From: Owenia fusiformis
Taxonomy: Eukaryota > Annelida > Polychaeta > Sabellida > Oweniidae
DNA: 64,000 nucleotides
NCBI GenBank assembly: GCA_903813345.2
Contig: CAIIXF020000007.1
Location: forward strand, 2,547,730 to 2,611,729
Direction of reading: 5' to 3'
Under the pieces are notes generated by a model. The model was given only the letters and a program-made list of their open reading frames with translations. It ran no database searches and was not told the origin of the DNA. Position 1 is the first letter of the stretch, and every line of letters begins with the position of its first letter. Position numbers and translations under genes: made by a program. This document shows, piece after piece, positions 673-41,326 of the stretch.

Positions 673-810
673 ACGAAGACACACGTTTAGTTACGAGATT
701 CAGTTTTTCATTTTTACACGTGCCTCGAAAACTAAAAAGATGGACGTTTTTCTCATTTGGACTTAGTTGTTCCTTTGAATTAGTGTTCAACAACTACTTA
801 TTTATTCAAT

Positions 811-3800
811 ATGGATAAACAAAATAGTCCAGTTAAGGGACGTCAAGGAAATAGCCCAGTCAAGGGGCCAACAACTGATAGCTCAGTGAAGGAGCAAAGG
901 AAGAAATCAACTTCAGGGAAAGAAGTAAGACCAAGTGGTTCTAAGGATATTGACTCTATTAGTGAAAACAGTGGTCATGAGTCTCCTGCTAGCATCTCAG
1001 ATGGTGATAATCATTCTGTAAGATCTTGGAATAACTACAAAATCCCTAAGAAAGTTGATTCAAAAGTTGACAATGTCAGAAGACGATCTAACAAATCAAA
1101 AAAGAGACCCCACTCTCATTCACGAAGCAAGTCAAGAAAGAAAGCTAAAACATCTCGCAAGTCAAAGTATGATTATGACAGTAGCAGTAGTAGCTCTTCT
1201 GACACTGATACTAGTTTTTCAAGCTATGAGTCAGCATCCTCTTCATGCTCTCAAAGTTGTTTCGATCCTCTCCATGAGGTAGAAAAGGAAAGATTCCATC
1301 TTGACAAAAACCAAGAGAAAGTGGTTTACAAATACTGGCGTAAGGAACTCATGTCAAAAAATGACGTTAAAAAACACATTTTAGATGAGTGTCCAAAGCC
1401 CACTTCCAAGGGTCTCAAACCATTGAAAAAAAATAGGAAAATTACCAAACTAATTAACAAACATGTAAATAATTATGACCAACAGTGGAAGGTTGTACAA
1501 GAGAAAATTGGTGACATCATGGGACCATTGTCCAAGTTATGGAATCTCATTGACATGGGCTCACATACAGCGGAGTTAGACATCGAGTACATTAAAAAAC
1601 TGCTCGACTCCACTGTAATCTTGGCAGGACAATCTAGCCAAATGATAACATATTACAGAAGATACAATTTTCTCAACCCTTTGTTTGGGTACAATAAAAC
1701 TGACACAAAAGAGTTTATTGAAGAGAACAAGAAAAACTTTCGCAAAGACTTGGACACAGATGAGTTGATAGGCAATAAAGTCTATAAAGAATTGATAAAT
1801 TCAAGTAAAGCAGCAAAAGAAATTGAAACCTTAAAAAAGTTGCTGCCAAAAAGAAACAGGCGCTTTCAGAACAACCCCTCTAACGCAAACAGTTACCAAG
1901 GTAGAGGGGGATTCAGAAGAGGTAACAATTCAAACTACTCCAACAAAGGAAACAGAAGTACAGCATATGGCTCCTCAAACAGAGGACGCAGAAATTCTAC
2001 CAACACTGGTGGACAAGGAACCAATGCCAAACAAAGGTATGTGCATTTCTTCTTCACAAAATCAAAAAGAAGTATTAGTTCAAATCCAACCATGGGAGCT
2101 CGATACAAAAAAGGTACATCTATTGGTGAAACAATTAAACATGTTTCCAATACCAAATCACCCAATCCCAGTAGGGGGAAGGCTAGCTTTGTTTCAAACA
2201 AATTGGGAAAAAATAACAAGCGATCTCGAAATTCTAGGCATCGTCTCGGGTTATCATCTGGAGTTTTCAGAAACACCAGTACAAAGGCAAAATGTCAATA
2301 TGACAAAGCTGAGTCCAGAAATAGAAAAGGAGGTATACACTTTACTGGAAAAAAATGCAATCGAAAAGGTAGATTTTCCAAATCAAGCTCAATTTCTGAG
2401 TCATATATTTCTCAGGGAGAAGAAAGACGGATCAATGAGACCCGTCCTAAATCTAAAACCGCTAAATGCATTTGTGACTTACAAACATTTCAAAATGGAA
2501 ACGCTTCCAATGCTAAAAGAATTGATTCAAAAAGAGGATTTCTTCTTGAAGCTCGACATGCGCGATGCTTATTTTGTGATTCCCATCGCAGCGCAGCATC
2601 GGAAATTCCTCCGATTTCAGATCAAAAACAATCTATACCAAATGACTTGTCTGCCATTCGGACTGGGATCTGCCCCGAGGGTGTTCACCAAGTTATTGAA
2701 AGTACCAATGGCAATCCTAAGAAAGATCGGGATCAAACTAATTATATTTCTCGACGACATATTGATCATAAACGACAATCCAGAGACTCTTCTTTGCCAT
2801 CTACACACAGCAATTTTCCTCTTGACCCACCTAGGGTTTCTAATAAACTGGGAAAAATCAATTCTAGTCCCGTCAAAACAGATCGAATATCTGGGGTTTC
2901 TCATAAATTCAGAAACAATGGAACTAAAACTCCCACAAGGGAAAGTCAATGCAATAAAGGAAAAATGTCAACATATGGCAAGTCTAAAAGAAACGTCTGT
3001 AAGAGATCTAGCCAGCATAATCGGAAAATTATCGGCATCGGCAACGGGAGTCCTTCCGGCCCCCCTTCACTACCGTCACTTACAAATGTCAAAGACAAAA
3101 GCCCTAATAAAAGGAAATCTCTCTTATGCAACCAAAATGATTGTAACGCCAGAAATAAAAAGAGAACTTCTTTGGTGGGTTTCAGAAATAGACAATTACA
3201 ACTCAAAACCAATAAAAATCCCAGAACCAAATCTCATAATATCAACAGACAGCAGCAAAACAGGTTGGGGGGCGGAATGTCAGGGAGAAACCATCCAGGG
3301 GAAATGGAGCCCTCAAGAGAGGGAAAATCACATCAATTACCTAGAATTGAAAGCAGTTCTATTTGCACTCAATGTATTCACAAAGAATCTGCAATGCATC
3401 CATGTTCATGTTCGAACAGACAATGTTTCAACCATGACTCACATAAACAAAATGGGGGGAACTCACTCAGTGAACCTTGTCAATCTCACGAAAGAGATAT
3501 TCAACTTTTGCATATCAAAAAAGATCACTCTTACTGCCGAATTTCTACCGGGGAAAATGAACACTCTGGCAGATCAAGCCTCCAGATTGTTCAAGGACGC
3601 TTCAGACTGGTCTCTGAACAATCAAATATTCAATCAAATTCAAAAAATTTGGGGGAATGTGCAAATGGACCTGTTCTCCAATCGACTGAATGCAAAGACA
3701 AAGCATTATGTCAGTTGGAAACCAGATCCACATGCGATTGCAACAGACGCGTTTACAATCAGCTGGAAAGAGAAGTTGCATTACAGCTTTCCACCGTTCT

Positions 3801-4980
3801 GCCTTATCAATCGTGTAATCTCAAAGATTCGGAGGGAAAAAGCGGAAATGATTTTGATAACACCAACTTGGCACACACAGCCATGGTGGCCTCTGCTACT
3901 GGAACTTTCAATAGAAAATCCAATTCTCCTTCCATCATTTCCAAATCTGTTAACATCCCCAGAAAGTCAACCACATCCTCTAATTCTCGAGAACAACCTC
4001 ACTCTAGCGGCATGGAGAGTCTCAGGGAACATTACTCTGCAAAAGGGTTTTCTGAAAAATCTACCGATTTGTTACTCAAATCCAGAAAAAAGGGTACATC
4101 AAAAGCTTACAATGGGCCCTGGGAAAAGTGGGTTAGCTGGTGTGAGGGAAAATCGATTGATCCATTTCAGTCATCTGTGGCCACTATAGCAGACTTTCTA
4201 TCACACATGTTTTCAGAAGGTAAGGAATATTCTACTTTGAATATTTTCAGATCTGCAATTTCAGCATATCATCCCCCCATAGATGGTGCTAAGGTAGGAC
4301 AACATCCTATTATTTGTAATCTGCTCAAAGGCATGTTCAACTCCAGGCCTCCATTACCAAGATATGAAGACACTTGGGACGTTGATATTATTCTCCGTCA
4401 CATCAAAACCCTTGGAGAGAATAGCTCACTTACTAGGAAAGATTTATCTCATAAACTTGCCATCCTTATGGCGCTGAGTAGTGCATGTAGAGGCTCTGAA
4501 CTACACAGAATTAACCCTTCAAAAATGTCAGATAAAGGTGTGGAAATTGTTTTTTATCTAGATGGAACAGGTAAGACATCTACACCTTCTGATCCACAGA
4601 ACATTCTGAGTTTTCAAGAATTTTCCCACAATTCCAAAATTGATGTTTTAACATGCATCAGGGCATATTTGAATGCCACTGTCTCATTCAGGAAATCCGA
4701 GCAACAGAAAGGTAAACTTTTCCTTTCTATTACCAAACCTCATAATCCAGTTTTACCATGTACAATAGCTAACTGGATAAAATGCATCATGGCTGAGGCA
4801 GGTATTGATGTCTCAAAATACAAAGCCCATTCAACCAGGTCTGCAGCAACATCGAAGGCCAGTAGTTGTGGTTTCTCCACCAGTCAAGTCATTAAGGTGG
4901 CTAACTGGTCAAATGCAAAAACATTTTTCAAATTCTATAAAAGACAAACAGCATCTTTCTCAGAACTAGTACTGAATTAA
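811..4980 (+). CDS. DIRS ORF1: Gag-like protein in one open frame with the recombinase
   Basis: One ATG-to-stop frame of 1389 codons. The first ~410 codons look like a real Gag-like protein: a Ser/Lys/Arg-rich start with SR-type and poly-Ser tracts (about residues 1-155), a mixed helical region (about 155-350), then an Asn/Gly/Arg-rich tail with RGG-like pieces (about 350-410), plausible for RNA binding. No zinc knuckle is seen. The middle third (about 2050-4010) overlaps the RT-RNase H gene in another frame; its Ser/Lys/Asn-heavy, domain-free translation looks like a shadow of that gene. The last 322 codons are the recombinase, annotated separately. Whether a single 1389-residue protein is made is unknown. 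More likely Gag ends early in practice and the recombinase is produced by internal initiation or another recoding step. The start at 811 is the first ATG of the frame and precedes the Gag-like composition. Confidence 0.7.
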   Translation: MDKQNSPVKGRQGNSPVKGPTTDSSVKEQRKKSTSGKEVRPSGSKDIDSISENSGHESPASISDGDNHSVRSWNNYKIPKKVDSKVDNVRRRSNKSKKRPHSHSRSKSRKKAKTSRKSKYDYDSSSSSSSDTDTSFSSYESASSSCSQSCFDPLHEVEKERFHLDKNQEKVVYKYWRKELMSKNDVKKHILDECPKPTSKGLKPLKKNRKITKLINKHVNNYDQQWKVVQEKIGDIMGPLSKLWNLIDMGSHTAELDIEYIKKLLDSTVILAGQSSQMITYYRRYNFLNPLFGYNKTDTKEFIEENKKNFRKDLDTDELIGNKVYKELINSSKAAKEIETLKKLLPKRNRRFQNNPSNANSYQGRGGFRRGNNSNYSNKGNRSTAYGSSNRGRRNSTNTGGQGTNAKQRYVHFFFTKSKRSISSNPTMGARYKKGTSIGETIKHVSNTKSPNPSRGKASFVSNKLGKNNKRSRNSRHRLGLSSGVFRNTSTKAKCQYDKAESRNRKGGIHFTGKKCNRKGRFSKSSSISESYISQGEERRINETRPKSKTAKCICDLQTFQNGNASNAKRIDSKRGFLLEARHARCLFCDSHRSAASEIPPISDQKQSIPNDLSAIRTGICPEGVHQVIESTNGNPKKDRDQTNYISRRHIDHKRQSRDSSLPSTHSNFPLDPPRVSNKLGKINSSPVKTDRISGVSHKFRNNGTKTPTRESQCNKGKMSTYGKSKRNVCKRSSQHNRKIIGIGNGSPSGPPSLPSLTNVKDKSPNKRKSLLCNQNDCNARNKKRTSLVGFRNRQLQLKTNKNPRTKSHNINRQQQNRLGGGMSGRNHPGEMEPSREGKSHQLPRIESSSICTQCIHKESAMHPCSCSNRQCFNHDSHKQNGGNSLSEPCQSHERDIQLLHIKKDHSYCRISTGENEHSGRSSLQIVQGRFRLVSEQSNIQSNSKNLGECANGPVLQSTECKDKALCQLETRSTCDCNRRVYNQLEREVALQLSTVLPYQSCNLKDSEGKSGNDFDNTNLAHTAMVASATGTFNRKSNSPSIISKSVNIPRKSTTSSNSREQPHSSGMESLREHYSAKGFSEKSTDLLLKSRKKGTSKAYNGPWEKWVSWCEGKSIDPFQSSVATIADFLSHMFSEGKEYSTLNIFRSAISAYHPPIDGAKVGQHPIICNLLKGMFNSRPPLPRYEDTWDVDIILRHIKTLGENSSLTRKDLSHKLAILMALSSACRGSELHRINPSKMSDKGVEIVFYLDGTGKTSTPSDPQNILSFQEFSHNSKIDVLTCIRAYLNATVSFRKSEQQKGKLFLSITKPHNPVLPCTIANWIKCIMAEAGIDVSKYKAHSTRSAATSKASSCGFSTSQVIKVANWSNAKTFFKFYKRQTASFSELVLN
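1967..4189 (+). CDS. DIRS reverse transcriptase-RNase H
   Basis: A 740-residue protein in the +1 frame relative to the Gag/recombinase frame. It copies the element RNA into DNA. Seen: RT fingers/palm with LDMRDAY (catalytic Asp about 197), LPFGLGSAPRVF (about 229-240) and the FLDD box (about 261-264). RNase H follows with Asp 428, Glu 460, Asp 485 and Asp 536 in the expected order. The C-terminal part (about 565-700), with DLFSNRLN and FPPF, is a segment common in DIRS elements that may correspond to the methyltransferase-like region; that link is inference. The first ATG lies inside the Gag frame, so expression needs +1 frameshifting or internal initiation. The end overlaps the recombinase start at 4012 by about 180 bp. 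No stop or missing catalytic residue was seen. Confidence 0.9.
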   Translation: MAPQTEDAEILPTLVDKEPMPNKGMCISSSQNQKEVLVQIQPWELDTKKVHLLVKQLNMFPIPNHPIPVGGRLALFQTNWEKITSDLEILGIVSGYHLEFSETPVQRQNVNMTKLSPEIEKEVYTLLEKNAIEKVDFPNQAQFLSHIFLREKKDGSMRPVLNLKPLNAFVTYKHFKMETLPMLKELIQKEDFFLKLDMRDAYFVIPIAAQHRKFLRFQIKNNLYQMTCLPFGLGSAPRVFTKLLKVPMAILRKIGIKLIIFLDDILIINDNPETLLCHLHTAIFLLTHLGFLINWEKSILVPSKQIEYLGFLINSETMELKLPQGKVNAIKEKCQHMASLKETSVRDLASIIGKLSASATGVLPAPLHYRHLQMSKTKALIKGNLSYATKMIVTPEIKRELLWWVSEIDNYNSKPIKIPEPNLIISTDSSKTGWGAECQGETIQGKWSPQERENHINYLELKAVLFALNVFTKNLQCIHVHVRTDNVSTMTHINKMGGTHSVNLVNLTKEIFNFCISKKITLTAEFLPGKMNTLADQASRLFKDASDWSLNNQIFNQIQKIWGNVQMDLFSNRLNAKTKHYVSWKPDPHAIATDAFTISWKEKLHYSFPPFCLINRVISKIRREKAEMILITPTWHTQPWWPLLLELSIENPILLPSFPNLLTSPESQPHPLILENNLTLAAWRVSGNITLQKGFLKNLPICYSNPEKRVHQKLTMGPGKSGLAGVRENRLIHFSHLWPL
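4012..4980 (+). CDS. DIRS tyrosine recombinase (C-terminal domain of the ORF1 frame)
   Basis: A 322-residue recombinase counted from the in-frame ATG at 4012. It would join the circular cDNA to the chromosome, replacing the DDE integrase of LTR elements. Seen: an N-terminal SAM-like core-binding stretch (about residues 15-110), then the catalytic set Arg 160 (ACRGSELHR), His 273 and Arg 276 (HSTR), Trp 299 at the third histidine position, and nucleophile Tyr 309 (FKFYKR). All are present and in order. The frame is continuous with the upstream Gag-like frame, so this could be a domain rather than a separate start; ATG 4012 is a convenient boundary, not a proven one. Confidence 0.88.
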   Translation: MESLREHYSAKGFSEKSTDLLLKSRKKGTSKAYNGPWEKWVSWCEGKSIDPFQSSVATIADFLSHMFSEGKEYSTLNIFRSAISAYHPPIDGAKVGQHPIICNLLKGMFNSRPPLPRYEDTWDVDIILRHIKTLGENSSLTRKDLSHKLAILMALSSACRGSELHRINPSKMSDKGVEIVFYLDGTGKTSTPSDPQNILSFQEFSHNSKIDVLTCIRAYLNATVSFRKSEQQKGKLFLSITKPHNPVLPCTIANWIKCIMAEAGIDVSKYKAHSTRSAATSKASSCGFSTSQVIKVANWSNAKTFFKFYKRQTASFSELVLN

Positions 4981-13616: not shown

Positions 13617-15240
13617 ATAATATAATAATAATAAGATTTTATTTCATATAAGGCCTCTGGCCCATTGTGTACATAGTATGTTTACAATAGTTTAATATTG
13701 GTTGCTTCAATAATTAATAGTGATAACTTCTTTAGGAGGATAGCATTTTTTGTTTTCATCAATTGGATGAATTGATCTGTGCTATAGTTTTCTACAAAGG
13801 TAATGTCAAGACTTAGTCTAATATTATGGTATCTAGGACACTTACACATTACATGGTACTCATCCTCTATTATTATGGTACAATATTTACACATTCTATT
13901 GTCTCTTACAATATTACGGTGTCTTCCCGTTTCAATTTCAAAACAGTGGTTCGAAACTCTAAATTTTGCTAGAGCTTTAATACATCTATATTCTAAATTA
14001 CATAATAAATAAAATTCAGGCTCTAAAATATTTTTAAATTGCATATATGTATATAATTTGGGGCTTTCCCTGAGTTTCCCTAGCCAAGCTTGGCTGTACA
14101 TATCCTGAAGTCTTTGCTTAAATATAAAAATAAAATATAATTGGTTCCCTACACTTTGCTCAAACCATGCATGTCCAAATCCCAGTGAAAAAAGCAAATA
14201 TTTGATTTTTGATGCCCAAGTTGTTTTTCCCGATTGATCTAGTTGATAAAGCATTGTATAGCATGATTTAGGATGTCTATGATTAGGCATTTCTGTTAAT
14301 TTTATCCAGTATTTTATGGTTTTAAGCATATAAGTGGTACAAAGTGGAAGTCTGCCACATTCGCCTAATGCTGCTGCATCATTTGATTGTGGTCCCACAC
14401 CTATATAATATTTACAAAATTGAGCTTGTGTACATTCAATTACATTACACCATTCATATCCCCACATCTCTGAACCATAGCACAAGATGGGTGTTACCAT
14501 GGCATCAAACAGAGAGAACATAAGTTTAAGTGGTATTCTTCCACACTTTTGGTTAAGTTGTTTGAGTAAAATAATAGATTTCTTTGCTTGTGAAGCAAGC
14601 TGACTTTTAGCTGGAGACCAGGAGAGTCTTGTGGAAAATAGTATACCTAGATACTTATAATATGATATTTGTTCTATCTCTGCTCCTTCGAAATAAAATT
14701 TTTCATTTTGCCTGAGGGGACCACCATTCCTGAACACCATCACATTTGTTTTCGATAAATTTACTTTCATTCCCCATTTACGTGAAAAGCTACCTAAGGT
14801 ATCAAGTTGTTTTTGCACATTTGGTACAGTGTTACCTATACAATTTAAGTCATCCACATAACACAATGCCATTATATTAGGGGAACCTTCTACAATATGG
14901 ATTCCTTGGCAGTTTTGTTCCCTCAGCATGTTAAAAAATGAGTTTACATACATAATGAACCACGTTGGGCTGAGTGAATCTCCTTGAAATATACCCTTTG
15001 TACATGGAAAAAAATTTGTAATTCCTTTTACATGTTTAATAGTATGGATATCTTGCTCTATATTTGCATTTATCTCGCATTTAACACAGCATTGAAGTTT
15101 ACTGTACATCGATTGATATAGTTTTAACACGTTACCATGGATACCTGTAGTCATCATTTTATAAAATAGGTGGCGGTGGGGTATATTATCAAACGCTTTT
15201 GAGAAAGTTACCGACTTCGTTTTTACGCCCCCACCACATT
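13617..15240 (-). mobile_element. 5'-truncated non-LTR retrotransposon (LINE)
   Basis: A minus-strand LINE remnant. The 3' end carries an AATAAA-like stretch followed by a short run of TTA repeats (about 13617-13645 on the plus strand), as in many invertebrate LINEs ending in a microsatellite rather than poly(A). The 5' end stops abruptly near 15230-15240, in the middle of the reverse-transcriptase domain at motif A. Truncation there is the normal outcome of incomplete target-primed reverse transcription. No target duplication was identified. Confidence 0.85.
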
Positions 15241-15316
15241 GTCTGGTCGGCCTAGGCGCGTCCGTATATCTGTTCGTACATCTGGCAGAAGTGTTCTCCA
15301 AAAATGCAGATATCAT
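13682..15316 (-). pseudogene. LINE reverse transcriptase, C-terminal part, 5' truncated
   Basis: A 544-codon open frame that is real LINE protein from about residue 34 on; the first ~33 residues are flanking DNA read through. Seen: the end of motif A (SKAFDNIPH) with Thr where the catalytic Asp should be, right at the junction; GIFQGDSLSP (about 108-117); the YVDD box (about 153-156); NLSKT and YLGILFS of the thumb; then a long C-terminal region ending in a CX2CX8HX4C knuckle (Cys 476, Cys 479, His 488, Cys 493). This layout is typical of I/Jockey-type LINEs; the exact clade is not settled. It lacks the endonuclease, motif A Asp and the upstream ORF, so it cannot move itself. That 500 codons remain open suggests a fairly young insertion. 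Confidence 0.85.
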
Positions 15317-15319
15317 TTT

Positions 15320-17350
15320 AAATTTTCAGGTATAACTTTTGAGAGCAGGAGGTTGAAAAAAAATTCGACTCGATAAATACTTCCTGTCGGCCATTTTGAA
15401 GTCAAATGCCTAATGTTGCTAAAAAACTGCCGTACATGGAATATTATTATTCGTTACATTATTACACGTAACAATTGGAGGAAGTCCATAACGGGAACCA
15501 AAGATTTGAAGCACAACCAACACCACTATGCCTTCTCAATCTGCTTTGACCAGTTGAACTCACTTTAGAAAAAGTTCCTCGTGATTGACCACATGACCAC
15601 AACTTAAGATATATTTTTATTTACGGATTCTTATTGATGTCTCCCCCGACGCTCGTTTATCAAACTCTGCTTCATTCGTTTGTATTCTAATATTCATGGA
15701 ACACTTTTATGCCTTTGTGTTCAAAGTAAATGGAAATGCGAAGTTAGTAAACTTAGACATGCTAATAAATTTAGTTAGTTCAATCATTCGCACACATTAT
15801 TCATTTGAATTTGATCTCTAGGGTTAATTGAGTCATATTTATCCGTCATATCTTCAATCTAATTTTGATATATGGCATGATCGGTTAGCAAAGTTACTCT
15901 GATGAAACGTTTTAAGTTTTGGGTCACACAAATCTTGTTCACTGAGGAAAGGTTGAAAATACCTCAAATTTCCTGAGTGAATTATTGCAATTTGAAAGCT
16001 AGAGGGAACTATGAATGTTGCTGGTCATTTATCAACGGTTTGTTTATGACTATTTGTTGCGTTCTTCAATCGCAATATTCCTCGTGGTTATTTGTGGTTT
16101 AGTGTTGGAATTAAGAAGAATACGTCTGGAAGGCAAACAAATAAAGTAGATGGTTACTGGGCGATATTTCACGATTAGTAATTTCAAATGCTCATTATGA
16201 GATACTGTTCTTCTTTGCAATACATTTCCCTTAATGATTCACGGGGTATTCATCGAGCATCATTACGTAAACAATTCGCTTATAAATAGTTTGAATTATT
16301 TCATGTTTCTTTTTGTCTGATCCATAATTCTTCTGTGGAAGAACCCTGGAGATTGAGTTGTTAATGTGTATTATCCCAGTCCATCGTCCAATTTCGGTCT
16401 ACATGAACGTGAAGGTTCGAATTCAGAGCGGAAAGGGTGCAGTGTTGACCTTGAAGTTGATATCACATCTCGGAAAGAGAGCTTTATTTATAACGTGGTC
16501 ACATTTGCTCCGATCTTCAAGACCGGCGCCCCGGCCGATGAGTAATTTGTTCAAAACCGATTTGCAATTTTGAACAAAATACTCCCATTCTTTCGAAGGA
16601 AAACCGAATCATCGAATAAATTCAGCAATCGATTTCAAACTCATGGCCACCGTGACAAAAAGTCAAATAACATTTGAAGTAAATTGTATAATTCCATCAC
16701 TTTATACATGATTATACACATATAAAGAACAAAATAAAAAGTAAAAGAAAATACTTTTGATTTTACTAATATGATGTTTTTCTTTCATCAGTGCATATTT
16801 ATCATTTCAAAATTTGATCAACGTTTGATATCGTGAGAGATTACAATTTTTATCAAATAAATATATGAAACTACAAAGGGAGTTCAACAATGCTGCTATT
16901 GAAGCTTAGGTCCTCCCTAACAATTTTAAATGTTACTATACAGTAAACACAATAACCTATACAAAGTTACATTGAATAAAAGTAGTGTCAAAATACTCAA
17001 CTGAAAATTGCAATTTTATATTGCGAACGTTGAACACTTATCGAAAAATTCGGTTAATTGTTTGAGGATAGGCCTCTCATTTATTGTGTTTGGCCATTCA
17101 ATGACATTGCTTTGCTGATCCAGAATGATAGCATTTCATAATTGCCTCCTAAGACAATCTTGTCCAAAGACGTCATCCGATGGAAGTTCAAGGTCAAGCT
17201 GTTTCTGTAGATTGATATATGGTGCAGCATTTTGGGGTATTTCTCCTTGTCTTGCTCATTTGTTTCTGGATGTGCCCATTTGATGCTTCAATTAAAGAAA
17301 CCCTATACAATTGATCTACGAAATATTTATCCCACTGAATGGGAAGCCTA
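15320..17350. other. Stretch without recognised genes
   Basis: Two kilobases of AT-rich DNA between the LINE junction and the palindromic element. A 71-codon frame at 16358-16573 has no recognisable domain. No repeats were noticed beyond short A/T runs. Confidence 0.45.
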
Positions 17351-18033
17351 GAATACCAGTAGATAGAAAACTGAGGGCATCAGGCCGCCACGGGCCGCCA
17401 CGGGCCCGGGGCTTTCAAAATCTCTGAAGATGAGCAGGAGATATAGATGAGCAGGAGATAAATTAATTGGATGGGGATTAGGAGATAAATTAATTGGATG
17501 GGGCTTTCATCTTAAATGTGTAAAAATGATAGATAAGATGCGCATGACATCATTGTTATCTTAAATGGGTGAGAAATGTATTTCTTGGACTGAATAGTAA
17601 AGTACAAAATAAATCCTTTTAATATTATTTTAAATTTGGTATAATCCATTAACAGTGTTTACAATTCTACTTTCAATATTAACCCAACATTGAAAAGAAT
17701 CAATAATCCTATTGAGCTGGTCAAACAAATACTGTTCGCATAAAAGGAAAGAGAACTGGATTTTGGATTAAATATGTGTACAGATGAAAAGGTTTATTTA
17801 TTTAAGTCCAATATTGAATTGACCGTTGAAAAGGTTTATTTATTTAAGTCCTATATTGAATTGACCATTTGATCTTACTATACTTGATTTCAACAATAAT
17901 GGTCTTTTAATGTAATAATTGAATGTTGACATTTAATTGTGTCATCACAGTGTTAATCCTTCATATTCTAGAACATCTTTTGTTTACAGTATAATCCCCT
18001 TTTTCAAAAACAGATTATAGCGATGAGTCATTA

Positions 18034-18051
18034 TTCTGGAAGGTTCCAGAA
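18034..18051 (+). promoter_or_regulatory. Heat-shock element, four alternating boxes, left arm
   Basis: TTCtgGAAggTTCcaGAA: four perfect alternating TTC/GAA boxes spaced by 2 bp, the arrangement bound by trimeric heat-shock factor in animals. It lies about 245 bp upstream of the gene start at 18297. A weaker copy, TTCtaGAAcaTCT, lies at 17966-17978. Binding is inferred from the motif only. Confidence 0.65.
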
Positions 18052-18296
18052 GTTTGACAGAAAAATCTATTGAATGTATCTTAAGAATATAAATAATCTT
18101 TCAACTTTCTAATCTGGAATGGTCAATAACAACAAGAACTACATTAATTCACGACATCAGTTTCTAAGAATATCACGACATCAGATGTTGATAAGAAGTT
18201 GATATTGATGCCACTTGACAATATATATTGAGTGAAATATTCAAATCTTTATCATTTCAATCCTCATACTTGATATATACACATCAACTAAAAACC

Positions 18297-18671
18297 ATGA
18301 AACTAGTACCATATGTAGACAACCCAGAACACTGGTTGAAACTTATTCGAGCTGGGAGACAGAATAGATTGAAAGTATCTCAAACAGGAAGAGGGTGGAT
18401 AGGCATAGATGACATTAAAGAAGATACTAAACCGGTATTAATCATATCACCCATGACTGCAGTTGTCGACAGAGCAAAGGCACAATTGAAACGTCAACAT
18501 GAAGATATGAAACATGAAGAGTATAGACCATCTAAAGAGAAACAACAAAACTCTGTAAATATAAAGAAGAAACATCCATTTAAACAGAAAAAACAAAACA
18601 CTTCGAATACAAGAAAGAAACGGACATTCTTATACAAACCACCTGGTATCCCAGCAAGGATGGACGATTAA
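18297..18671 (+). CDS. Small basic protein of the palindromic element, left copy
   Basis: A 124-residue protein of unassigned function, the only gene in the arm. I start it at ATG 18297, which has A at -3 and an MKLVPY start typical of small virion-type proteins; an upstream in-frame ATG at 18228 would add 23 unremarkable residues. Residues 1-65 are mixed, with a PEHW segment and a Gly-rich turn (QTGRGWIGID, about 29-38). Residues 66-115 are strongly basic and hydrophilic (KKKHPFKQKK, TRKKRT), suggesting nucleic-acid binding. The tail is PPGIPARMDD. No signal peptide or membrane segment. A poly(A) signal follows 30 bp after the stop. In a Polinton-like context it could be one of the small unassigned proteins (such as PX) or a DNA-packing core protein; this is only inference. 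Confidence 0.7.
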   Translation: MKLVPYVDNPEHWLKLIRAGRQNRLKVSQTGRGWIGIDDIKEDTKPVLIISPMTAVVDRAKAQLKRQHEDMKHEEYRPSKEKQQNSVNIKKKHPFKQKKQNTSNTRKKRTFLYKPPGIPARMDD

Positions 18672-18701
18672 AGTTATTTGTATATAATACTGAACGATAT
18701 G

Positions 18702-18707
18702 AATAAA
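18702..18707 (+). terminator. Poly(A) signal of the left-arm gene
   Basis: AATAAA 30 bp after the stop codon, in an AT-rich stretch. It gives the small gene a compact transcription unit. The mirrored signal is at 21247-21252. Confidence 0.6.
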
Positions 18708-18774
18708 AATAAATAACTAAAGTTTCAAATGTTGTTGCTATTTACAGTCATTTACAAATGGTTTGAATATGTAT

Positions 18775-18970
18775 GAGCATTAGTTAGCATTACCTCATTA
18801 GCATCTGTTAGCATTATCATTAGCATATGTTAGCATCTGTTAGCATTATCATTAGTATCTGTTAGCATTACCATTAGCATATGTTAGCATCTGTTACCAT
18901 TACCATTAGCATATGTTAGCATCTGTTAGCATTACATCATTAGCATATGTTAGCATTATTTAGCATTAGT
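18775..18970 (+). repeat. TTAGCAT short tandem repeats, left arm
   Basis: About 200 bp of irregular units built on TTAGCAT with CTG, ATG, TAT or ACC joins. Mirrored at 20984-21179. It separates the gene from the larger TGTTCAC array. Confidence 0.8.
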
Positions 18971-19922
18971 TTTACAAATGTTCACTGATGTTCACAAATG
19001 TTCACTGATGTTCACAAATGTTCAAAAATGTTCACTAGTATTGTTCACAAATGTTCACTGATGTTCACAAATGTTCAAAAATGTTCACTAGTATTGTTCA
19101 CAAATGTTCACTGATGTTCACAAATGTTCACTAGTATTGTTCACAAATGTTCACTGATGTTCACAAATGTTCACTAGTATTGTTCACAAATGTTCACTGA
19201 TGTTCACAAATGTTCACTAGTATTGTTCACAAATGTTCACTGATGTTCACTAGTATTGTTCACTGATGTTCACAAATGTTCACTGATGTTCACAAATGTT
19301 CAAAAATGTTCACTAGTATTGTTCACAAATGTTCACAAATGTTCACTAGTATTGTTCACAAATGTTCACTGATGTTCACAAATGTTCAAAAATGTTCACT
19401 AGTATTGTTCACAAATGTTCACTGATGTTCACAAATGTTCACTAGTATTGTTCACAAATGTTCACTGATGTTCACAAATGTTCACTAGTATTGTTCACAA
19501 ATGTTCACTGATGTTCACAAATGTTCACTAGTATTGTTCACAAATGTTCACTGATGTTCACTAGTATTGTTCACTGATGTTCACAAATGTTCACTGATGT
19601 TCACAAATGTTCAAAAATGTTCACTAGTATTGTTCACAAATGTTCACAAATGTTCACTAGTATTGTTCACAAATGTTCACTGATGTTCACAAATGTTCAA
19701 AAATGTTCACTAGTATTGTTCACAAATGTTCACAAATGTTCACTAGTATTGTTCACAAATGTTCACTGATGTTCACTAGTATTGTTCACTGATGTTCACT
19801 GATGTTCACTAGTATTGTTCACTGATGTTCACAAATGTTCACAAATGTTCACTAGTATTGTTCACAAATGTTCACTAGTATTGTTCACTGATGTTCACAA
19901 ATGTTCACTGATGTTCACAAAT
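18971..19922 (+). repeat. TGTTCAC satellite array, left arm
   Basis: About 950 bp of tandem units of three kinds: CTGATGTTCA, CAAATGTTCA and CTAGTATTGTTCA. A higher-order period of about 311 bp is visible: the segment TTCAAAAATG followed by CTAGTATTG recurs at 19299 and 19610. Short frames across it only reflect the repeat. Its position next to the core could mean a replication or protein-binding role, but no function is shown. Confidence 0.85.
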
Positions 19923-20031
19923 GTTCACAGGGAATGAGGAGGAGGAGGAGGGGATGAGGAGGAGGGAATGAGGATGATGGAATGAGGAGGAGGATTAGGA
20001 GGGAATGAGGAGGAGAAGGAGGAGGAGGGGG
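19923..20031 (+). other. Purine-rich core spacer of the palindrome
   Basis: 109 bp, almost all G and A, built from GGAATGAGGAGGAGGA-type units. It is the only part of the element not duplicated in inverted form. A polypurine strand at the turn of a perfect palindrome could favour triplex or loop structure; it may also be the fold-back point where the second arm was copied. Confidence 0.75.
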
Positions 20032-20983
20032 ATTTGTGAACATCAGTGAACATTTGTGAACATCAGTGAACAATACTAGTGAACATTTGTGAACAATACT
20101 AGTGAACATTTGTGAACATTTGTGAACATCAGTGAACAATACTAGTGAACATCAGTGAACATCAGTGAACAATACTAGTGAACATCAGTGAACATTTGTG
20201 AACAATACTAGTGAACATTTGTGAACATTTGTGAACAATACTAGTGAACATTTTTGAACATTTGTGAACATCAGTGAACATTTGTGAACAATACTAGTGA
20301 ACATTTGTGAACATTTGTGAACAATACTAGTGAACATTTTTGAACATTTGTGAACATCAGTGAACATTTGTGAACATCAGTGAACAATACTAGTGAACAT
20401 CAGTGAACATTTGTGAACAATACTAGTGAACATTTGTGAACATCAGTGAACATTTGTGAACAATACTAGTGAACATTTGTGAACATCAGTGAACATTTGT
20501 GAACAATACTAGTGAACATTTGTGAACATCAGTGAACATTTGTGAACAATACTAGTGAACATTTTTGAACATTTGTGAACATCAGTGAACATTTGTGAAC
20601 AATACTAGTGAACATTTGTGAACATTTGTGAACAATACTAGTGAACATTTTTGAACATTTGTGAACATCAGTGAACATTTGTGAACATCAGTGAACAATA
20701 CTAGTGAACATCAGTGAACATTTGTGAACAATACTAGTGAACATTTGTGAACATCAGTGAACATTTGTGAACAATACTAGTGAACATTTGTGAACATCAG
20801 TGAACATTTGTGAACAATACTAGTGAACATTTGTGAACATCAGTGAACATTTGTGAACAATACTAGTGAACATTTTTGAACATTTGTGAACATCAGTGAA
20901 CATTTGTGAACAATACTAGTGAACATTTTTGAACATTTGTGAACATCAGTGAACATTTGTGAACATCAGTGAACATTTGTAAA
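20032..20983 (-). repeat. TGTTCAC satellite array, right arm
   Basis: Mirror image of the left array, reading GTGAACA units on the plus strand, with the same order of unit types at the inner end over the part compared. Confidence 0.85.
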
Positions 20984-21282
20984 ACTAATGCTAAATAATG
21001 CTAACATATGCTAATGATGTAATGCTAACAGATGCTAACATATGCTAATGGTAATGGTAACAGATGCTAACATATGCTAATGGTAATGCTAACAGATACT
21101 AATGATAATGCTAACAGATGCTAACATATGCTAATGATAATGCTAACAGATGCTAATGAGGTAATGCTAACTAATGCTCATACATATTCAAACCATTTGT
21201 AAATGACTGTAAATAGCAACAACATTTGAAACTTTAGTTATTTATTTTTATTCATATCGTTCAGTATTATATACAAATAACT

Positions 21283-21657
21283 TTAATCGTCCATCCTTGC
21301 TGGGATACCAGGTGGTTTGTATAAGAATGTCCGTTTCTTTCTTGTATTCGAAGTGTTTTGTTTTTTCTGTTTAAATGGATGTTTCTTCTTTATATTTACA
21401 GAGTTTTGTTGTTTCTCTTTAGATGGTCTATACTCTTCATGTTTCATATCTTCATGTTGACGTTTCAATTGTGCCTTTGCTCTGTCGACAACTGCAGTCA
21501 TGGGTGATATGATTAATACCGGTTTAGTATCTTCTTTAATGTCATCTATGCCTATCCACCCTCTTCCTGTTTGAGATACTTTCAATCTATTCTGTCTCCC
21601 AGCTCGAATAAGTTTCAACCAGTGTTCTGGGTTGTCTACATATGGTACTAGTTTCAT
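21283..21657 (-). CDS. Small basic protein of the palindromic element, right copy
   Basis: Second copy of the 124-residue protein, with an identical translation, on the opposite strand. Both copies point inward toward the core, each with its own upstream box and poly(A) signal. Two intact identical copies mean either very recent formation or homogenisation; since one copy would suffice for selection, identity more likely reflects the inverted-repeat structure than function. Confidence 0.7.
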   Translation of the reverse strand: MKLVPYVDNPEHWLKLIRAGRQNRLKVSQTGRGWIGIDDIKEDTKPVLIISPMTAVVDRAKAQLKRQHEDMKHEEYRPSKEKQQNSVNIKKKHPFKQKKQNTSNTRKKRTFLYKPPGIPARMDD

Positions 21658-21902
21658 GGTTTTTAGTTGATGTGTATATATCAAGTATGAGGATTGAAAT
21701 GATAAAGATTTGAATATTTCACTCAATATATATTGTCAAGTGGCATCAATATCAACTTCTTATCAACATCTGATGTCGTGATATTCTTAGAAACTGATGT
21801 CGTGAATTAATGTAGTTCTTGTTGTTATTGACCATTCCAGATTAGAAAGTTGAAAGATTATTTATATTCTTAAGATACATTCAATAGATTTTTCTGTCAA
21901 AC

Positions 21903-21920
21903 TTCTGGAACCTTCCAGAA
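21903..21920 (-). promoter_or_regulatory. Heat-shock element, four alternating boxes, right arm
   Basis: Mirror of 18034-18051, TTCTGGAACCTTCCAGAA on the plus strand, about 245 bp upstream of the right-arm gene. Confidence 0.65.
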
Positions 21921-22602
21921 TAATGACTCATCGCTATAATCTGTTTTTGAAAAAGGGGATTATACTGTAAACAAAAGATGTTCTAGAATATGAAGGATTA
22001 ACACTGTGATGACACAATTAAATGTCAACATTCAATTATTACATTAAAAGACCATTATTGTTGAAATCAAGTATAGTAAGATCAAATGGTCAATTCAATA
22101 TAGGACTTAAATAAATAAACCTTTTCAACGGTCAATTCAATATTGGACTTAAATAAATAAACCTTTTCATCTGTACACATATTTAATCCAAAATCCAGTT
22201 CTCTTTCCTTTTATGCGAACAGTATTTGTTTGACCAGCTCAATAGGATTATTGATTCTTTTCAATGTTGGGTTAATATTGAAAGTAGAATTGTAAACACT
22301 GTTAATGGATTATACCAAATTTAAAATAATATTAAAAGGATTTATTTTGTACTTTACTATTCAGTCCAAGAAATACATTTCTCACCCATTTAAGATAACA
22401 ATGATGTCATGCGCATCTTATCTATCATTTTTACACATTTAAGATGAAAGCCCCATCCAATTAATTTATCTCCTAATCCCCATCCAATTAATTTATCTCC
22501 TGCTCATCTATATCTCCTGCTCATCTTCAGAGATTTTGAAAGCCCCGGGCCCGTGGCGGCCCGTGGCGGCCTGATGCCCTCAGTTTTCTATCTACTAATA
22601 CC

Positions 22603-37085: not shown

Positions 37086-37662
37086 GAACAGCACAGTGAC
37101 TCTCATTAGCAGATAATTAAATCATCATATAACTGGACATCTCAAAGGAACTAAATAGAGCAGAATTTCAAAGTTTATCAAAAGGACATCTTCTTAGCAG
37201 AAAATTACAACAACCTACTGTGGGAACATTTATAACAATACAAACATACAACCTGAGGACTTTACATGGACATATATTACAACACACACTATATACGGAT
37301 TATCATATACATTCGTGGATTACCATAAACATTTGTGGATTATCATCAAACATTTGTGGATTATCATCAAACATTATTGGATACAAACATTATAGGATTA
37401 CAACAAACATTATTGGATTATTACAAACATTGGAGAACTATTAACGATTATTGAAACATTTCGTGATCTGGAACTTTCTCAAGGATCGTCAACGACATTT
37501 ATCGACATCAAGAATAAGCCGTATCATTGATTGGACATCACTTAAGTATTAAACCTCCTTTATATTATTGTTATATTATTTAGTTTTTCAAAATATAAAT
37601 ATATTGTTATCATATTTTAATTGCTGTTTTTACTTTCTGTTATTTTCGAACGTAACAGAAAT

Positions 37663-37680
37663 TGGGGGCTTGTCCGGGAT
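37663..37680 (+). promoter_or_regulatory. Primer binding site, tRNA-Pro type
   Basis: TGGGGGCTTGTCCGGGAT, 5 bp after the 5' LTR. It is complementary to the 3' end of animal tRNA-Pro with one mismatch (CTT for CTC). It would prime minus-strand cDNA. Confidence 0.85.
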
Positions 37681-37769
37681 ACAACTACAACAAGCTAAAA
37701 TTCAAATATTTTAAAATTCAATATCCAACCCTTGTATATTTAAATTGTGAAGACAGCAATTAATCGAAA

Positions 37770-40691
37770 ATGAGTTTTGAGGTTGAGACATTTTTAGAAG
37801 CGCCCTCTTTGGAGGAATTTGATGATTTAAAGAAAACTGAACTTCTGGCAATTGCAAAACATGTTGGCCTGTCAGTCAAAAGCTCATACAAAAAGGATAC
37901 AATTAAAAACTTTGTACTTCAGTATTTGGTTGCAGAATCACTTCTGCCTGAGCAGCCAGCCCAGCATGTTGAGCATGATCCTATTAGACTTAAAGAGCTT
38001 GAATTTCAACAAAAATTGCAACTGAGAGAGCTTGAACTTAAACTACACAATGAAATCAGAGAGAAAGAAATGCAAAATGAAAGAGAAATAAGGGAACAAG
38101 AAATGATTAAATACAATGTAGAAAAGGAAATAGAATTAAAACGTCTTGAGTTAGAAATTAAAAACAAAACTGAAGAACATGCTCTTGAGCATCAATGTTT
38201 TAAAAATAGGTTCGATGCAGCAGATAACATTGAACTTGTACCAAAGTTTGAAGAGAATAATGTTGATAAATATTTTCCTCATTTTGAAAAAGTAGCCTTG
38301 TGCCTAGATTGGCCAAAATCAGTATGGCCTGTGATGCTTCAAAGCAAGCTTACTGGTAAAGCTAGCGAAGTGTATTCAGCTCTCTCCATTGAAGCAAGCT
38401 CTGATTATGATCAAGTTAAAAAGGCTGTTCTTAAAGCCTATGAACTAGTGCCAGAAGCATATAGGCAAAAATTTAGGTATACTTATAAACAAGATGATCA
38501 AACCTATGTAGAGTTTGCTAGGGAGCAAGAGCAATTTTTTGACAGGTGGCTTGTCTCTAAAGATGCATCTGAAAACTTTAAGAAGCTCAGAGAGCTTATG
38601 CTTATAGAACAATTTAAAAATTGTGTTCAGCGCCGTATTAGAATTTATTTGGATGAACGCAAAGTAGAAACTTTGAGTCAGGCTGCCACCCTGTCTGATG
38701 ATTATGCGCTTACTCACAAAGGTAGTTTTATTAAAGGTAATCCTAACTTTAGAGGTTATCAAGGTAACAAACCTTCATATGATACTAAATCAAATCAGTC
38801 CTCATCATCAAATACATCACACAAAGCAAAAGACCAGTCTAATTCATCACAGAGTTCTAGCTCAAAATCAGATCAATCAAAATCGTCAGGTCCAACATCA
38901 AATGTCACCTGTAACTATTGTAAAAAGCCTGGTCATCTTATTTCTGAATGCTATAGGATTAAGAATAGAAGAGAGATGTCTGGTTTTGCTCATTCAAATG
39001 GTTGTGCTACAGTTCCCATTTCAAGAAAGCCCATTGTTTGGGATTCATATACTCATACTGAGAAATCTACTCATGGTGATATTATGGAGGATTATAAGCC
39101 TTTCATGTCCGAAGGATCTGTGTCACTGTCAAGTGATGGTACCAATTCAAAGCCAATTAAGATTCTTAGAGACACGGGTGCATCTCAGACTTTGTTGTTA
39201 GAAGGCGTCCTTCCTTTATCTGAGGAGTCATTCACAGGTACCCATATTTTGATGCAAGGCATTGAATTAGGATTTACTAAAGTTCCCCTCCATCGTATTC
39301 ATATCACATCAGAGTTAGTCAAAGGGCCAGTTATTGTTGGTGTTAGGCCACAACTTCCTGTTGAAGGAGTCGCATTGCTTTTAGGCAATGATTTAGCTGG
39401 GGGTAAGGTATCATTAGACCCCATTGTTTCAGATCAGCCTTGTTCTATTGAGGATTCTGTCCAAGAGGACTCTGATATATATCCTGCTTGTGCTGTTACT
39501 AGGGCTATGGCTAAAAAGTTAGCTGATAGCGGGGATTCGTCTGTGGGAGATGACTTTGATAGTGGGTTTTTAAGCTCCTTGTTTGATGATGAATGTCACT
39601 CACCACTTGTTAAAGATGATCCTTATCCTATTTTAAAGGCAAATTCTTCATTGAAACAGCCTTCTGTTCAAGCAAAGCAGTCATCTATTGAGGCAAATTC
39701 TTCATTGAAAAAGCCTATTGCCAGAGGTGATTCACCTTCTGAGCAGGATCACTATTTTAATGCGGTTCCGCCCGCTCTTGCTAGTCCTGATGAAGTTTCA
39801 TCTTCTTCTGCTAGTGTTCATGAGGTTTCATCCCCTCCTTGTTCTGAGGTTTCATCCTCTTCTAGTTCTGAGGTTTCATCCTCTATTTCTGATAGTGATT
39901 CTTTGAAAAATGATCCTCATTCTAAACACATGTTAATTTATGAACAAGAGCATGATCCATCACTCATTGATATTCATAAAAGATGTCTTACTATTGATGA
40001 AGCTGACAAGGTCCCTGTTTGTTTCTACAAAAAGGATGGCATATTAATGCGAAAGTGGAGACCTCCTGAAGCTTCCCCTAAAGATAATTGGGCAATTGCA
40101 CATCAAATTGTTGTCCCAAAATCGTATCATAAGGAAATCTTGAGTCTAGCTCATGATTCTCCCATGGCAGTTCATTTAGGAGTAACTAAAACATACCATA
40201 AAATACTCAATCATTTCTATTGGCCCAAATTAAAACAAGATGTCCAAGAGTATTGTAGGTCTTGTCATACATGTCAAATGGTAGGGATACCTAACCAGAA
40301 AATCTCAATTGCTCCTTTACAACTTATACCTGCATTTGATGAACCATTCAGTAAGGTTCTTATTGACTGTGTTGGTCCATTACCAAAAACAAAGTCTGAT
40401 AATCAATATCTGCTCACTATTCTGTCTATGGCCACACAGTTTCTAGAAATAAAATCACTCCTTATGCTTGGGAATAACAAAACCAAGTATATTGTGAAAT
40501 CACAAATCAATAATTTCACATTAGTGGAGCTACCAAAGGAGCTCATATCTGACTTACAATCTGACTCAGTGCTGAATGATTTCATTTGCATTGATAGAAC
40601 TACTCCTGTGAGGTGTAGAGAGCTACACATGATGAAAAAGTATGTTGAGCGTGATAAAATTTCTTTACTCAACATGAGCTTGTGCTCTTAG
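37770..40691 (+). CDS. Gag-protease-integrase fragment polyprotein of the LTR element
   Basis: 973 residues. Order seen: a short SAP-like N-terminus (about 15-55); a long Glu/Lys/Arg-rich coiled coil (about 70-140); a capsid-like helical region (about 145-315), similar in type to Gmr1/SCAN-related capsids; Ser-rich linker; a CCHC knuckle (Cys 381, Cys 384, His 389, Cys 394); an aspartic protease with DTGA (468-471) and LLGNDLAGG (537-545); an acidic Ser-rich linker (about 585-715); and the integrase zinc domain (His 795, His 802, Cys 832, Cys 835). The integrase core starts normally (Asp 866 in LIDCVGPLP), then degrades. An Asp (about 928) may be the second catalytic residue, but the Glu is missing and the end is unrelated sequence. 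RT-RNase H is absent, yet the frame is fully open. It could make particles and cut them. Start chosen at the first ATG, 90 bp after the primer site. Confidence 0.88.
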   Translation: MSFEVETFLEAPSLEEFDDLKKTELLAIAKHVGLSVKSSYKKDTIKNFVLQYLVAESLLPEQPAQHVEHDPIRLKELEFQQKLQLRELELKLHNEIREKEMQNEREIREQEMIKYNVEKEIELKRLELEIKNKTEEHALEHQCFKNRFDAADNIELVPKFEENNVDKYFPHFEKVALCLDWPKSVWPVMLQSKLTGKASEVYSALSIEASSDYDQVKKAVLKAYELVPEAYRQKFRYTYKQDDQTYVEFAREQEQFFDRWLVSKDASENFKKLRELMLIEQFKNCVQRRIRIYLDERKVETLSQAATLSDDYALTHKGSFIKGNPNFRGYQGNKPSYDTKSNQSSSSNTSHKAKDQSNSSQSSSSKSDQSKSSGPTSNVTCNYCKKPGHLISECYRIKNRREMSGFAHSNGCATVPISRKPIVWDSYTHTEKSTHGDIMEDYKPFMSEGSVSLSSDGTNSKPIKILRDTGASQTLLLEGVLPLSEESFTGTHILMQGIELGFTKVPLHRIHITSELVKGPVIVGVRPQLPVEGVALLLGNDLAGGKVSLDPIVSDQPCSIEDSVQEDSDIYPACAVTRAMAKKLADSGDSSVGDDFDSGFLSSLFDDECHSPLVKDDPYPILKANSSLKQPSVQAKQSSIEANSSLKKPIARGDSPSEQDHYFNAVPPALASPDEVSSSSASVHEVSSPPCSEVSSSSSSEVSSSISDSDSLKNDPHSKHMLIYEQEHDPSLIDIHKRCLTIDEADKVPVCFYKKDGILMRKWRPPEASPKDNWAIAHQIVVPKSYHKEILSLAHDSPMAVHLGVTKTYHKILNHFYWPKLKQDVQEYCRSCHTCQMVGIPNQKISIAPLQLIPAFDEPFSKVLIDCVGPLPKTKSDNQYLLTILSMATQFLEIKSLLMLGNNKTKYIVKSQINNFTLVELPKELISDLQSDSVLNDFICIDRTTPVRCRELHMMKKYVERDKISLLNMSLCS

Positions 40692-41315
40692 CTCATAGGC
40701 CAAACTCGTATGTCAATGACAACTATACATGTATGTTATTCAAGAGTCAGATATTGTAAATTATCATGATTAACTCATGAAGATTATATTATATGGTAGG
40801 CAAATTAGAGATTTGTGATAACTGTCACTTTATTTTAACAATATATAAAAACATTTGCCTAAATAGTGAAATTGATATTATGTGTGAGCATTATAGGTGA
40901 TCATTAAATAGCATCACAAGATTACTTGATAATATGAGAGTGTACTATTAGAAGTACTAAAGTAAGATCATGTGATAATTTAAAACATTGTACTAGTTTA
41001 GTGTTTGTCAGACTCAAAAAAATGTATGCTATTGTACATGTTATATGATCTATTGCATGTATTGTATTTATGACTTTTAATGCATAACTTATGTAGATAT
41101 TATTGTAGTATGGGATTATAAGAACATTATATGTTATTAGATTGTACTCACACTGTAACGATAGAAAGTATTATATACTTGTAAACATACTGCACATAAA
41201 AAGACTATTGTAAACAAATATTATGTAAGTCTCAACCTCACTTTTAGAAATTGCAACGCTCACTGCTCAAGATATTATTGTAAAAGTTTTTCATTGCATT
41301 CAAAACTTTTCTTTT
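40692..41315 (+). other. Non-coding 3' part of the LTR element
   Basis: About 620 bp with no ORF between the polyprotein stop and the polypurine tract. RT-RNase H would be expected here in a complete Gmr1-type element, so this marks where the deletion joined. No remnant of RT motifs is visible. Confidence 0.6.
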
Positions 41316-41326
41316 AAGGAGGGAGG
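41316..41326 (+). promoter_or_regulatory. Polypurine tract
   Basis: AAGGAGGGAGG directly before the 3' LTR; primer for plus-strand cDNA. Confidence 0.85.

What the first reader, a model, noticed from the sequence alone, without database searches (positions are those of the whole stretch)
17358..22596. A whole mobile element that is one palindrome: possible captured snap-back genome of a Polinton-like virus
Seen: 2565-bp arms with no net length difference, a 109-bp core, AG..CT ends and AATACC duplicated outside. Known: Polintons/Mavericks have AG..CT ends and 6-bp duplications and likely replicate by protein priming; adenoviruses, which also use protein priming, give rise to symmetric defective genomes when the polymerase folds back. 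Inference: a defective genome made of one virus end copied twice was integrated by a complete relative's integrase. I know of no described Polinton consisting only of terminal repeats plus one gene.
Basis: partly seen in the sequence, partly recalled or inferred. Interest (0 to 1): 0.9.

Follow-up and report, generated by a model that had tools for sequence, protein, structure and literature searches.

The report
Palindromic satellite of mini-Polinton viruses
This is a real mobile element that is almost one perfect palindrome; it belongs to a family of very small virus-like elements (Polinton relatives without a DNA polymerase gene) and looks like a folded-back, defective viral genome that became a lineage of its own and keeps its two halves alike.

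Summary
In detail: 2565-bp identical arms, 109-bp core, AGTAGATAG..CTATCTACT ends, AATACC duplicated. It is not a one-off. The same ends bound three classes of insertion; 23 of 23 read whole have perfect 6-bp duplications. A: 8 kb, packaging ATPase, rve integrase, adenain-like protease and, by synteny, PW and capsid genes, but no PolB. B: 4 kb, PW and a second ATPase. P: palindromes (10 read whole, 3 in part) round one homologous polypurine core. The gene in the palindrome is PW. Arms evolve in concert: in 8 palindromes 74 private substitutions lie on both arms, 1 on one. One non-palindromic relative (L051) shares the core up to GGGGGATTT, then runs into the B ATPase gene; palindromes turn back at that base with 4 nt of microhomology. 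The snap-back idea is largely supported, with corrections: relatives are 8 kb, none read has PolB, and this is an established, re-integrating lineage rather than a fresh capture. Where arms are equalised and which polymerase copies them is unproven.

The parts
17352..17357 (.). left target-site duplication AATACC
17358..19922 (+). left arm, 2565 nt
17358..17577 (+). terminal ~220 bp shared with both ends of class A and B elements, begins AGTAGATAG
18297..18671 (+). PW-like gene, left copy (124 codons, MKLVPYV...)
   Evidence: PW by synteny
18783..18955 (+). TTAGCAT tandem array, left
18979..19928 (+). TGTTCAC tandem array, left
19923..20031 (+). 109-nt unpaired centre with the polypurine core (GGAATGAGGAGG...GGGGG)
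20032..22596 (-). right arm, 2565 nt; 20032 is the A of ATTTGTGAACATC, the fold-back point
20036..20975 (-). TGTTCAC tandem array, right (inverted)
20999..21171 (-). TTAGCAT tandem array, right (inverted)
21283..21657 (-). PW-like gene, right copy, identical to the left one
22377..22596 (-). right terminal ~220 bp, ends CTATCTACT
22597..22602 (.). right target-site duplication AATACC

Best explanation
The element is an integrated copy of a palindromic satellite lineage of a PolB-less ('mini') Polinton family. Origin (inferred from anatomy): while a B-like linear genome was being copied, the growing 3' end stopped just past a polypurine tract, its last four bases (ATTT) paired with AAAT in its own upstream TGTTCAC array, and synthesis ran back to the terminus. 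That gave a genome made of one end twice with a loop of about 110-250 nt. It kept both functional ends, so the integrase of class A elements could insert it with 6-bp duplications (the duplications are shown, the enzyme is inferred). The lineage is now at 13 or more loci (10 read whole), took arms from A and B relatives by recombination, and equalised its outer arms, most simply because single strands fold into a hairpin in which each difference between arms is a mismatch that gets repaired. What 7 of the 10 carry, twice each and under purifying selection, is PW, a small basic protein encoded between the minor and major capsid genes in full Polintons; my guess is a virion core or packaging protein. 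It depends on relatives for capsid, protease and integrase and on an unidentified polymerase.
For: Ends: 23 of 23 elements read whole have perfect 6-bp duplications, all different. Class A genes: A32-type ATPase 2e-7, rve 7.8e-12, chromodomain 2.4e-8, adenovirus-type protease 6.4e-5; A integrase 36% identical over 344 aa to that of a PolB-bearing Polinton here. Gene order int - p109 - p139 - PW - p450 - protease fits int-mCP-PW-MCP-pro of vertebrate Mavericks (PMC8097293 section 7). Core: 14 places in the genome; 10 are palindromes read whole, 3 show the array before and the inverted array after the core, 1 (L051) does not. L051: core, then ...GGGGGATTT|AACAATG = interior of the B ATPase gene, with a B right end 0.6 kb on; L019, L052, L053 and L054 match it for the last 15 nt and all leave it at the same base for GTGAACAT. 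Concerted arms: in 8 of 10 palindromes tested, private substitutions on both arms 74, on one arm 1; end-pairing permutation for 10 palindromes, observed 18, mean 205, 0 of 10,000. Selection on PW: pooled pN/pS 0.158 among 7 palindromes; window versus A dN 0.30, dS 1.46.
Against: No PolB with these ends was found, so protein priming of this family is not shown. L051 was seen over 701 bp plus one coordinate match; it could be a palindrome x B recombinant rather than a relative of the parent. Equal arms could come from gene conversion after insertion. The inner arrays differ in length between arms in 9 of 10 palindromes (all but the window's), so equalisation is incomplete. 56 of the 74 both-arm substitutions are in one element (L049) and may include misaligned columns; without it 18 to 1; L015 and L019 were not in that test. 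In 8 of 23 elements some other element's end is nearer than its own other end, and for class A alone the permutation is weak (327 of 10,000). In L023 the exact snap-back match is only 12 nt. PW is assigned by synteny and 32-33% identity; p450 as major capsid protein rests on synteny (no match). Three palindromes carry no PW.
Confidence: 0.7

Rival explanations
1. Chromosomal origin of arm identity: the palindrome was made once, inserts as an ordinary non-autonomous element, and its arms are kept alike by gene conversion between arms in the chromosome, as in Y-chromosome palindromes (recalled).
For: Would also give both-arm private changes. Inner arrays differ in length between arms in 9 of 10 palindromes, as patchy conversion would leave them.
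Against: Weak: class B ends, only ~250 bp long and 3.5-4 kb apart, also pair within elements more than between (2 of 10,000 permutations), which a replicating panhandle explains as readily as chromosomal conversion. Insertions were not dated here.
Confidence: 0.25
2. Head-to-head recombination between two left ends through their TGTTCAC arrays, not snap-back priming, made the first palindrome.
For: Arrays are long and shared by A and P; the chimeric arms (L016, L021, L022) show recombination among classes.
Against: The inversion point is a 4-nt microhomology next to the core rather than a crossover within the array; the paired stretch ends at the same array unit (next bases GTTCACAG) in 6 of the 8 palindromes that matched the strict pattern.
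Confidence: 0.2
3. A Foldback-type or other ordinary DNA transposon with very long terminal repeats, unrelated to viruses.
For: Long inverted repeats rich in tandem arrays are typical of Foldback elements (recalled).
Against: Same ends and 6-bp duplications as elements that encode Polinton integrase, packaging ATPase and viral-type protease.
Confidence: 0.03
4. Assembly artefact (foldback joining of one arm to itself).
For: Palindromes are a known assembly hazard (recalled); no reads were available.
Against: Matching 6-bp duplications with different flanks at 10 of 10 palindromes read whole; no inverted flank match at the window; an asymmetric core; unequal inner arrays in 9 of 10.
Confidence: 0.02

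Closest known systems
Polintons/Mavericks (Polintoviricetes)
   Same: 6-bp duplications, AGT..ACT ends, rve integrase, A32-type ATPase, C5-type protease, int-mCP-PW-MCP-pro order in class A
   Different: 8 kb instead of 12.7-24.6 kb (intact vertebrate Mavericks, PMC8097293 section 7); AGTAGA not AGTAGT; no PolB; class B has two genes, class P has PW twice or (3 of 10) no PW
AAV snapback genomes (PMC8235507; abstract and outline seen)
   Same: defective genomes in snapback form, made of one end with part of the genes
   Different: parvovirus, extrachromosomal particles; here an integrated, multiply inserted lineage with a shared core and mobile ends
Symmetric defective adenovirus genomes
   Same: protein-primed relative in which one end is duplicated (recalled; not found in the listings)
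   Different: not integrated; no arm-swapping lineage known to me
Foldback/Galileo transposons (recalled)
   Same: very long inverted repeats with tandem arrays and a short centre
   Different: other transposases; no link to viral genes
Phage satellites such as SaPIs that bring their own packaging factor (recalled)
   Same: class B carries only a packaging-type ATPase and PW, so could redirect a helper's packaging
   Different: functional parallel only; not tested

Membership tests
Polinton/Maverick | 6-bp target-site duplication | tested here: met
   23 of 23 elements read whole (20, L028 after correction, L049 and L050)
Polinton/Maverick | (AGT)2..(ACT)2 or (AG)3..(CT)3 ends | tested here: inconclusive
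   AGTAGA..TCTACT: five of six bases of (AGT)2; the four PolB-bearing loci examined have AGTAGT
Polinton/Maverick | protein-primed PolB | tested here: not met
   not among the ORFs of L009 or the B ATPase; PF03175 has 11 matches at 7 loci, none at the coordinates of an A, B or P element read
Polinton/Maverick | rve integrase | tested here: met
   class A only; no such ORF in B or P
Polinton/Maverick | packaging ATPase (A32-like) | tested here: met
   A 2e-7, B 9.9e-10; absent from P
Polinton/Maverick | adenain/Ulp1-type protease | tested here: met
   class A, Peptidase_C5 6.4e-5, 23.1 bits against a cut-off of 21.3
[quoted passage not shown]
   p450 has the position and 32-34% homologues in PolB Polintons, but no Pfam or PDB match; fold not predicted
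Snapback (self-complementary) defective genome | genome is one end twice with a short asymmetric loop | tested here: met
Snapback (self-complementary) defective genome | arises by polymerase turning back on its own strand | tested here: inconclusive
   microhomology and L051 agree; not observed directly
Snapback (self-complementary) defective genome | extrachromosomal or packaged form | not testable with these tools
   no reads available
Foldback-type transposon | its own transposase superfamily | not tested
   no Foldback transposase was searched for; the shared ends belong to elements with a Polinton integrase

The most novel reading that the evidence does not exclude
A three-tier viral society lives in one genome: PolB-less 8-kb mini-Polintons, two-gene satellites (packaging ATPase + PW) that parasitise their particles, and a self-complementary palindromic satellite that replicates as a hairpin, equalises its arms every cycle, swaps arms with the other two and re-enters chromosomes with borrowed integrase: a defective interfering genome that became a heritable, selected lineage.
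Probability: 0.35. Interest if true: 0.9.

Novelty: new variant of a known kind. Interest (0 to 1): 0.76.

Why it matters
Polinton particles had not been observed according to the abstract of PMC8097293 (listing), and their replication is inferred. A chromosomal record of fold-back genomes, with a fixed inversion point and co-varying arms, is indirect evidence that such elements pass through a linear single-strand or hairpin stage outside the chromosome. It also points to a genome where loci of the putative capsid gene p450 (81, fragments included) outnumber PolB loci (7) (both lower bounds), so PolB-less Polinton relatives with satellites of their own may be common and overlooked.

Tried and rejected
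Rejected: assembly fold-back (flanks differ, duplications match); chance; ordinary transposon. The idea that the arm is simply the left end of the 8-kb element was rejected for the window's element: its first ~0.65 kb match both A and B, then B with PW, then the A-type array; of the ten, L024 alone is plain A-left.

Led nowhere: phrogs for p450 and PW (one weak p450 hit at 0.0055 to a family of unknown function); PDB search with p450; IMG/VR scans with p450 and with its alignment, no relative; AlphaFold of PW alone, mean pLDDT 59.2, not interpretable; Rfam on the window, none. Literature: the listings (17 of 17 shown; 2 of 2; 13 of 13; 15 of 183; 15 of 21; 12 of 50; 12 of 453), open-licence PMC only, showed no title or abstract start on a palindromic Polinton; most papers of the longer lists were not seen. 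Of papers I saw section 7 and passages of PMC8097293, passages of PMC11071308, and the abstract and outline of PMC8235507. Two further papers were not held.

Not answered: a search of the genome with the B ATPase (last try) and with the arm interior (last try); so satellites of other families, the left end of L051 and the full number of palindromes are open.
Full report
1. Observation. The window element is as described: arms 17358-19922 and 20032-22596, 2565 nt, 100% complementary, 109 nt between; AATACC on both sides, ends AGTAGATAG..CTATCTACT. The 10-kb flanks show no inverted match to each other. Each arm has one ORF of 124 codons from its ATG, a TTAGCAT array and a TGTTCAC array.

2. Family. 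The first 201 bp of the arm match 47 places in the 498-Mb genome (40 of 80 candidates scored, so a lower bound). I fetched 20 further loci, later two more. With the window that makes 23 elements read whole, all with perfect 6-bp duplications, no two alike. They fall into three classes. A (6 read; 9 loci by p450 at 95-100% identity): 8.0-8.5 kb, terminal repeats ~220-290 bp, a TGTTCAC array and seven ORFs on one strand. B (7 read; 9 loci by their right end besides L051): 3.9-4.5 kb, a PW gene, a TTAGCAT array and a 516-codon ATPase. P (10 read whole): palindromes of 3.8-7.2 kb.

3. Genes. Class A: C2H2/A32-type ATPase, rve integrase with chromodomain, p109, p139, PW-like protein, p450, C5-type protease (Pfam was run on one copy, L009). 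The order integrase-mCP-PW-MCP-protease is that of vertebrate Mavericks (PMC8097293, section 7), and homologues of p450 (32-34%) and PW (32-33% to the window protein) stand next to each other in the two large PolB-bearing Polintons of this genome. A and B ATPases are 40% identical and A and window PW 66%, while their ends are much closer: B is an anciently split partner rather than a recent deletion of A (inference).

4. PolB. PF03175 has 11 matches at 7 loci. Two have open frames of 1485 and 1475 codons inside Polintons of 18.7 and 22.1 kb; these and two more PolB loci have AGTAGT..ACTACT ends, and the printed flanks show 6-bp duplications. p450 has 94 matches, merged to 81 loci, 3 of them within 25 kb of PolB. 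PolB is therefore not linked to the AGTAGA ends in anything I read.

5. The palindromes are one lineage. The ten read whole share the core and, with small variants (L016, L023, L024, L050), its borders. A pattern across the left border, one mismatch allowed, finds 14 places: the ten, three more (L052-L054, 361-366 bp each) that show the end of the array before the core and the inverted array after it, and one that is not palindromic (L051). None of the 13 A and B elements read has such a core; the PolB-bearing elements on C4 and C5 have polypurine tracts of another sequence.

6. The inversion point. In L051 arrays and core are followed by ...GGGGGATTT|AACAATGAATGAGC, which is the interior of the B ATPase gene (96% over 278 nt), with a B right end at C6:19885654 (98%); that junction pattern occurs once in the genome at up to two mismatches. 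In palindromes the same GGGGGATTT (GGAGGATTT in L023, L024) is followed by the array read backwards, GTGAACATC. L019, L052, L053 and L054 leave L051 at the same base. Since ATTTGTGAAC is itself array sequence on the other strand, the two stretches overlap by ATTT: the mark of a short-homology turn-back. In 6 of the 8 palindromes matching the strict pattern the paired stretch ends at the same array unit; loops are 106-253 nt and exact pairing next to the loop runs 12-399 nt, the shortest in L023 (L049 and L050 did not match the pattern and are not counted). If L051 were instead a later recombinant, its breakpoint would have to hit this spot by accident; I judge that less likely but saw only 701 bp of it.

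7. Concerted arms. In the outer arms, measured up to the arrays (for the window and L015 through them), six of ten palindromes have no difference (WIN 2565, L015 2883, L016 2090, L022 1839, L023 1460, L024 1130 bp); L019 has 10 substitutions, L021 2, L049 2, L050 1. Among the 28 pairs of the first eight palindromes none is identical over the first 1100 bp. Private substitutions, gap columns dropped, in 8 of 10 palindromes (L015, L019 left out) sit on both arms 74 times and on one arm once (18 to 1 without L049, whose 56 may include misaligned columns). Against full equalisation: the inner arrays differ in length between arms in 9 of 10, all but the window's. Terminal types pair a/a 18, b/b 4, mixed 1. 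Permuting ends among elements, with substitutions plus gap events over 200 nt: all 23, observed 89 against a mean of 401, 0 of 10,000; P 18 against 205, 0; B 58 against 133, 2; A 13 against 22.5, 327. In 8 of 23 elements another element's end is nearer than its own other end. Whole arm exchanges are symmetric too: L024 has A-left arms, L016/L021/L022 A-left joined to the B PW region at one shared point, the window, L023, L049 and L050 B-left arms, and L015 a ~1-kb stretch of unknown origin, each on both sides.

8. Selection. Seven of ten palindromes have two intact PW copies. Pooled pN/pS is 0.158 within P (21 pairs), 0.070 within B (21), 0.336 within A (15); window versus A dN 0.30, dS 1.46. 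Pairs are not independent, but the direction is clear. L015, L019 and L024 lack the gene.

9. Mechanism. Shown: insertion of palindromes with 6-bp duplications, a shared core, co-varying outer arms, conserved PW. Inferred: snap-back origin, hairpin repair, class A integrase in trans, capsid supply by A. Unknown: the polymerase. The PW model has no value; a basic, short protein encoded next to the capsid genes suggests a core or packaging role.

10. Novelty and limits. Snapback defective genomes are known in AAV (PMC8235507 abstract). I found no report of an integrated, multiply inserted palindromic Polinton relative in the listings named under Tried and rejected, which cover open-licence PMC only and were partly capped.

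Noticed in passing
window 784-4977: ORF with a weak tyrosine recombinase match (PF00589, 8.4e-6, just under its cut-off) and, in an overlapping frame at 1835-4186, a reverse transcriptase: looks like a DIRS-type retroelement.
   Followed up: no
window 13682-15322 (-): Reverse transcriptase ORF (PF00078, 5.2e-20), probably a LINE fragment.
   Followed up: no
window 37297-41977: Two tandem-repeat blocks with the same consensus and scores, 4546 bp apart, flank an ORF with SCAN and H2C2 integrase domains: possibly an LTR-type element.
   Followed up: partly
window 50852-52492 and 60883-62933: Long satellite arrays of 33-bp and 54-bp units; the second lies in a strongly G-skewed stretch.
   Followed up: no
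G000 (PW search): 54 PW hits of other families have no p450 match within 1.5 kb, hinting at two-gene satellites in several families.
   Followed up: partly
G000:C10:22417099 (-) and 22422228 (+): Two PW copies of another family in diverging orientation 4.8 kb apart.
   Followed up: no
L015, element positions ~363-1378 and mirror: A ~1-kb AT-rich stretch of unknown origin present at the same place in both arms.
   Followed up: partly
L046:1827-2149, L048:2818-3224: Polypurine tracts ahead of an ORF with a P-loop motif (my reading, no family search) in two other PolB-bearing elements: such tracts may have a general role.
   Followed up: no
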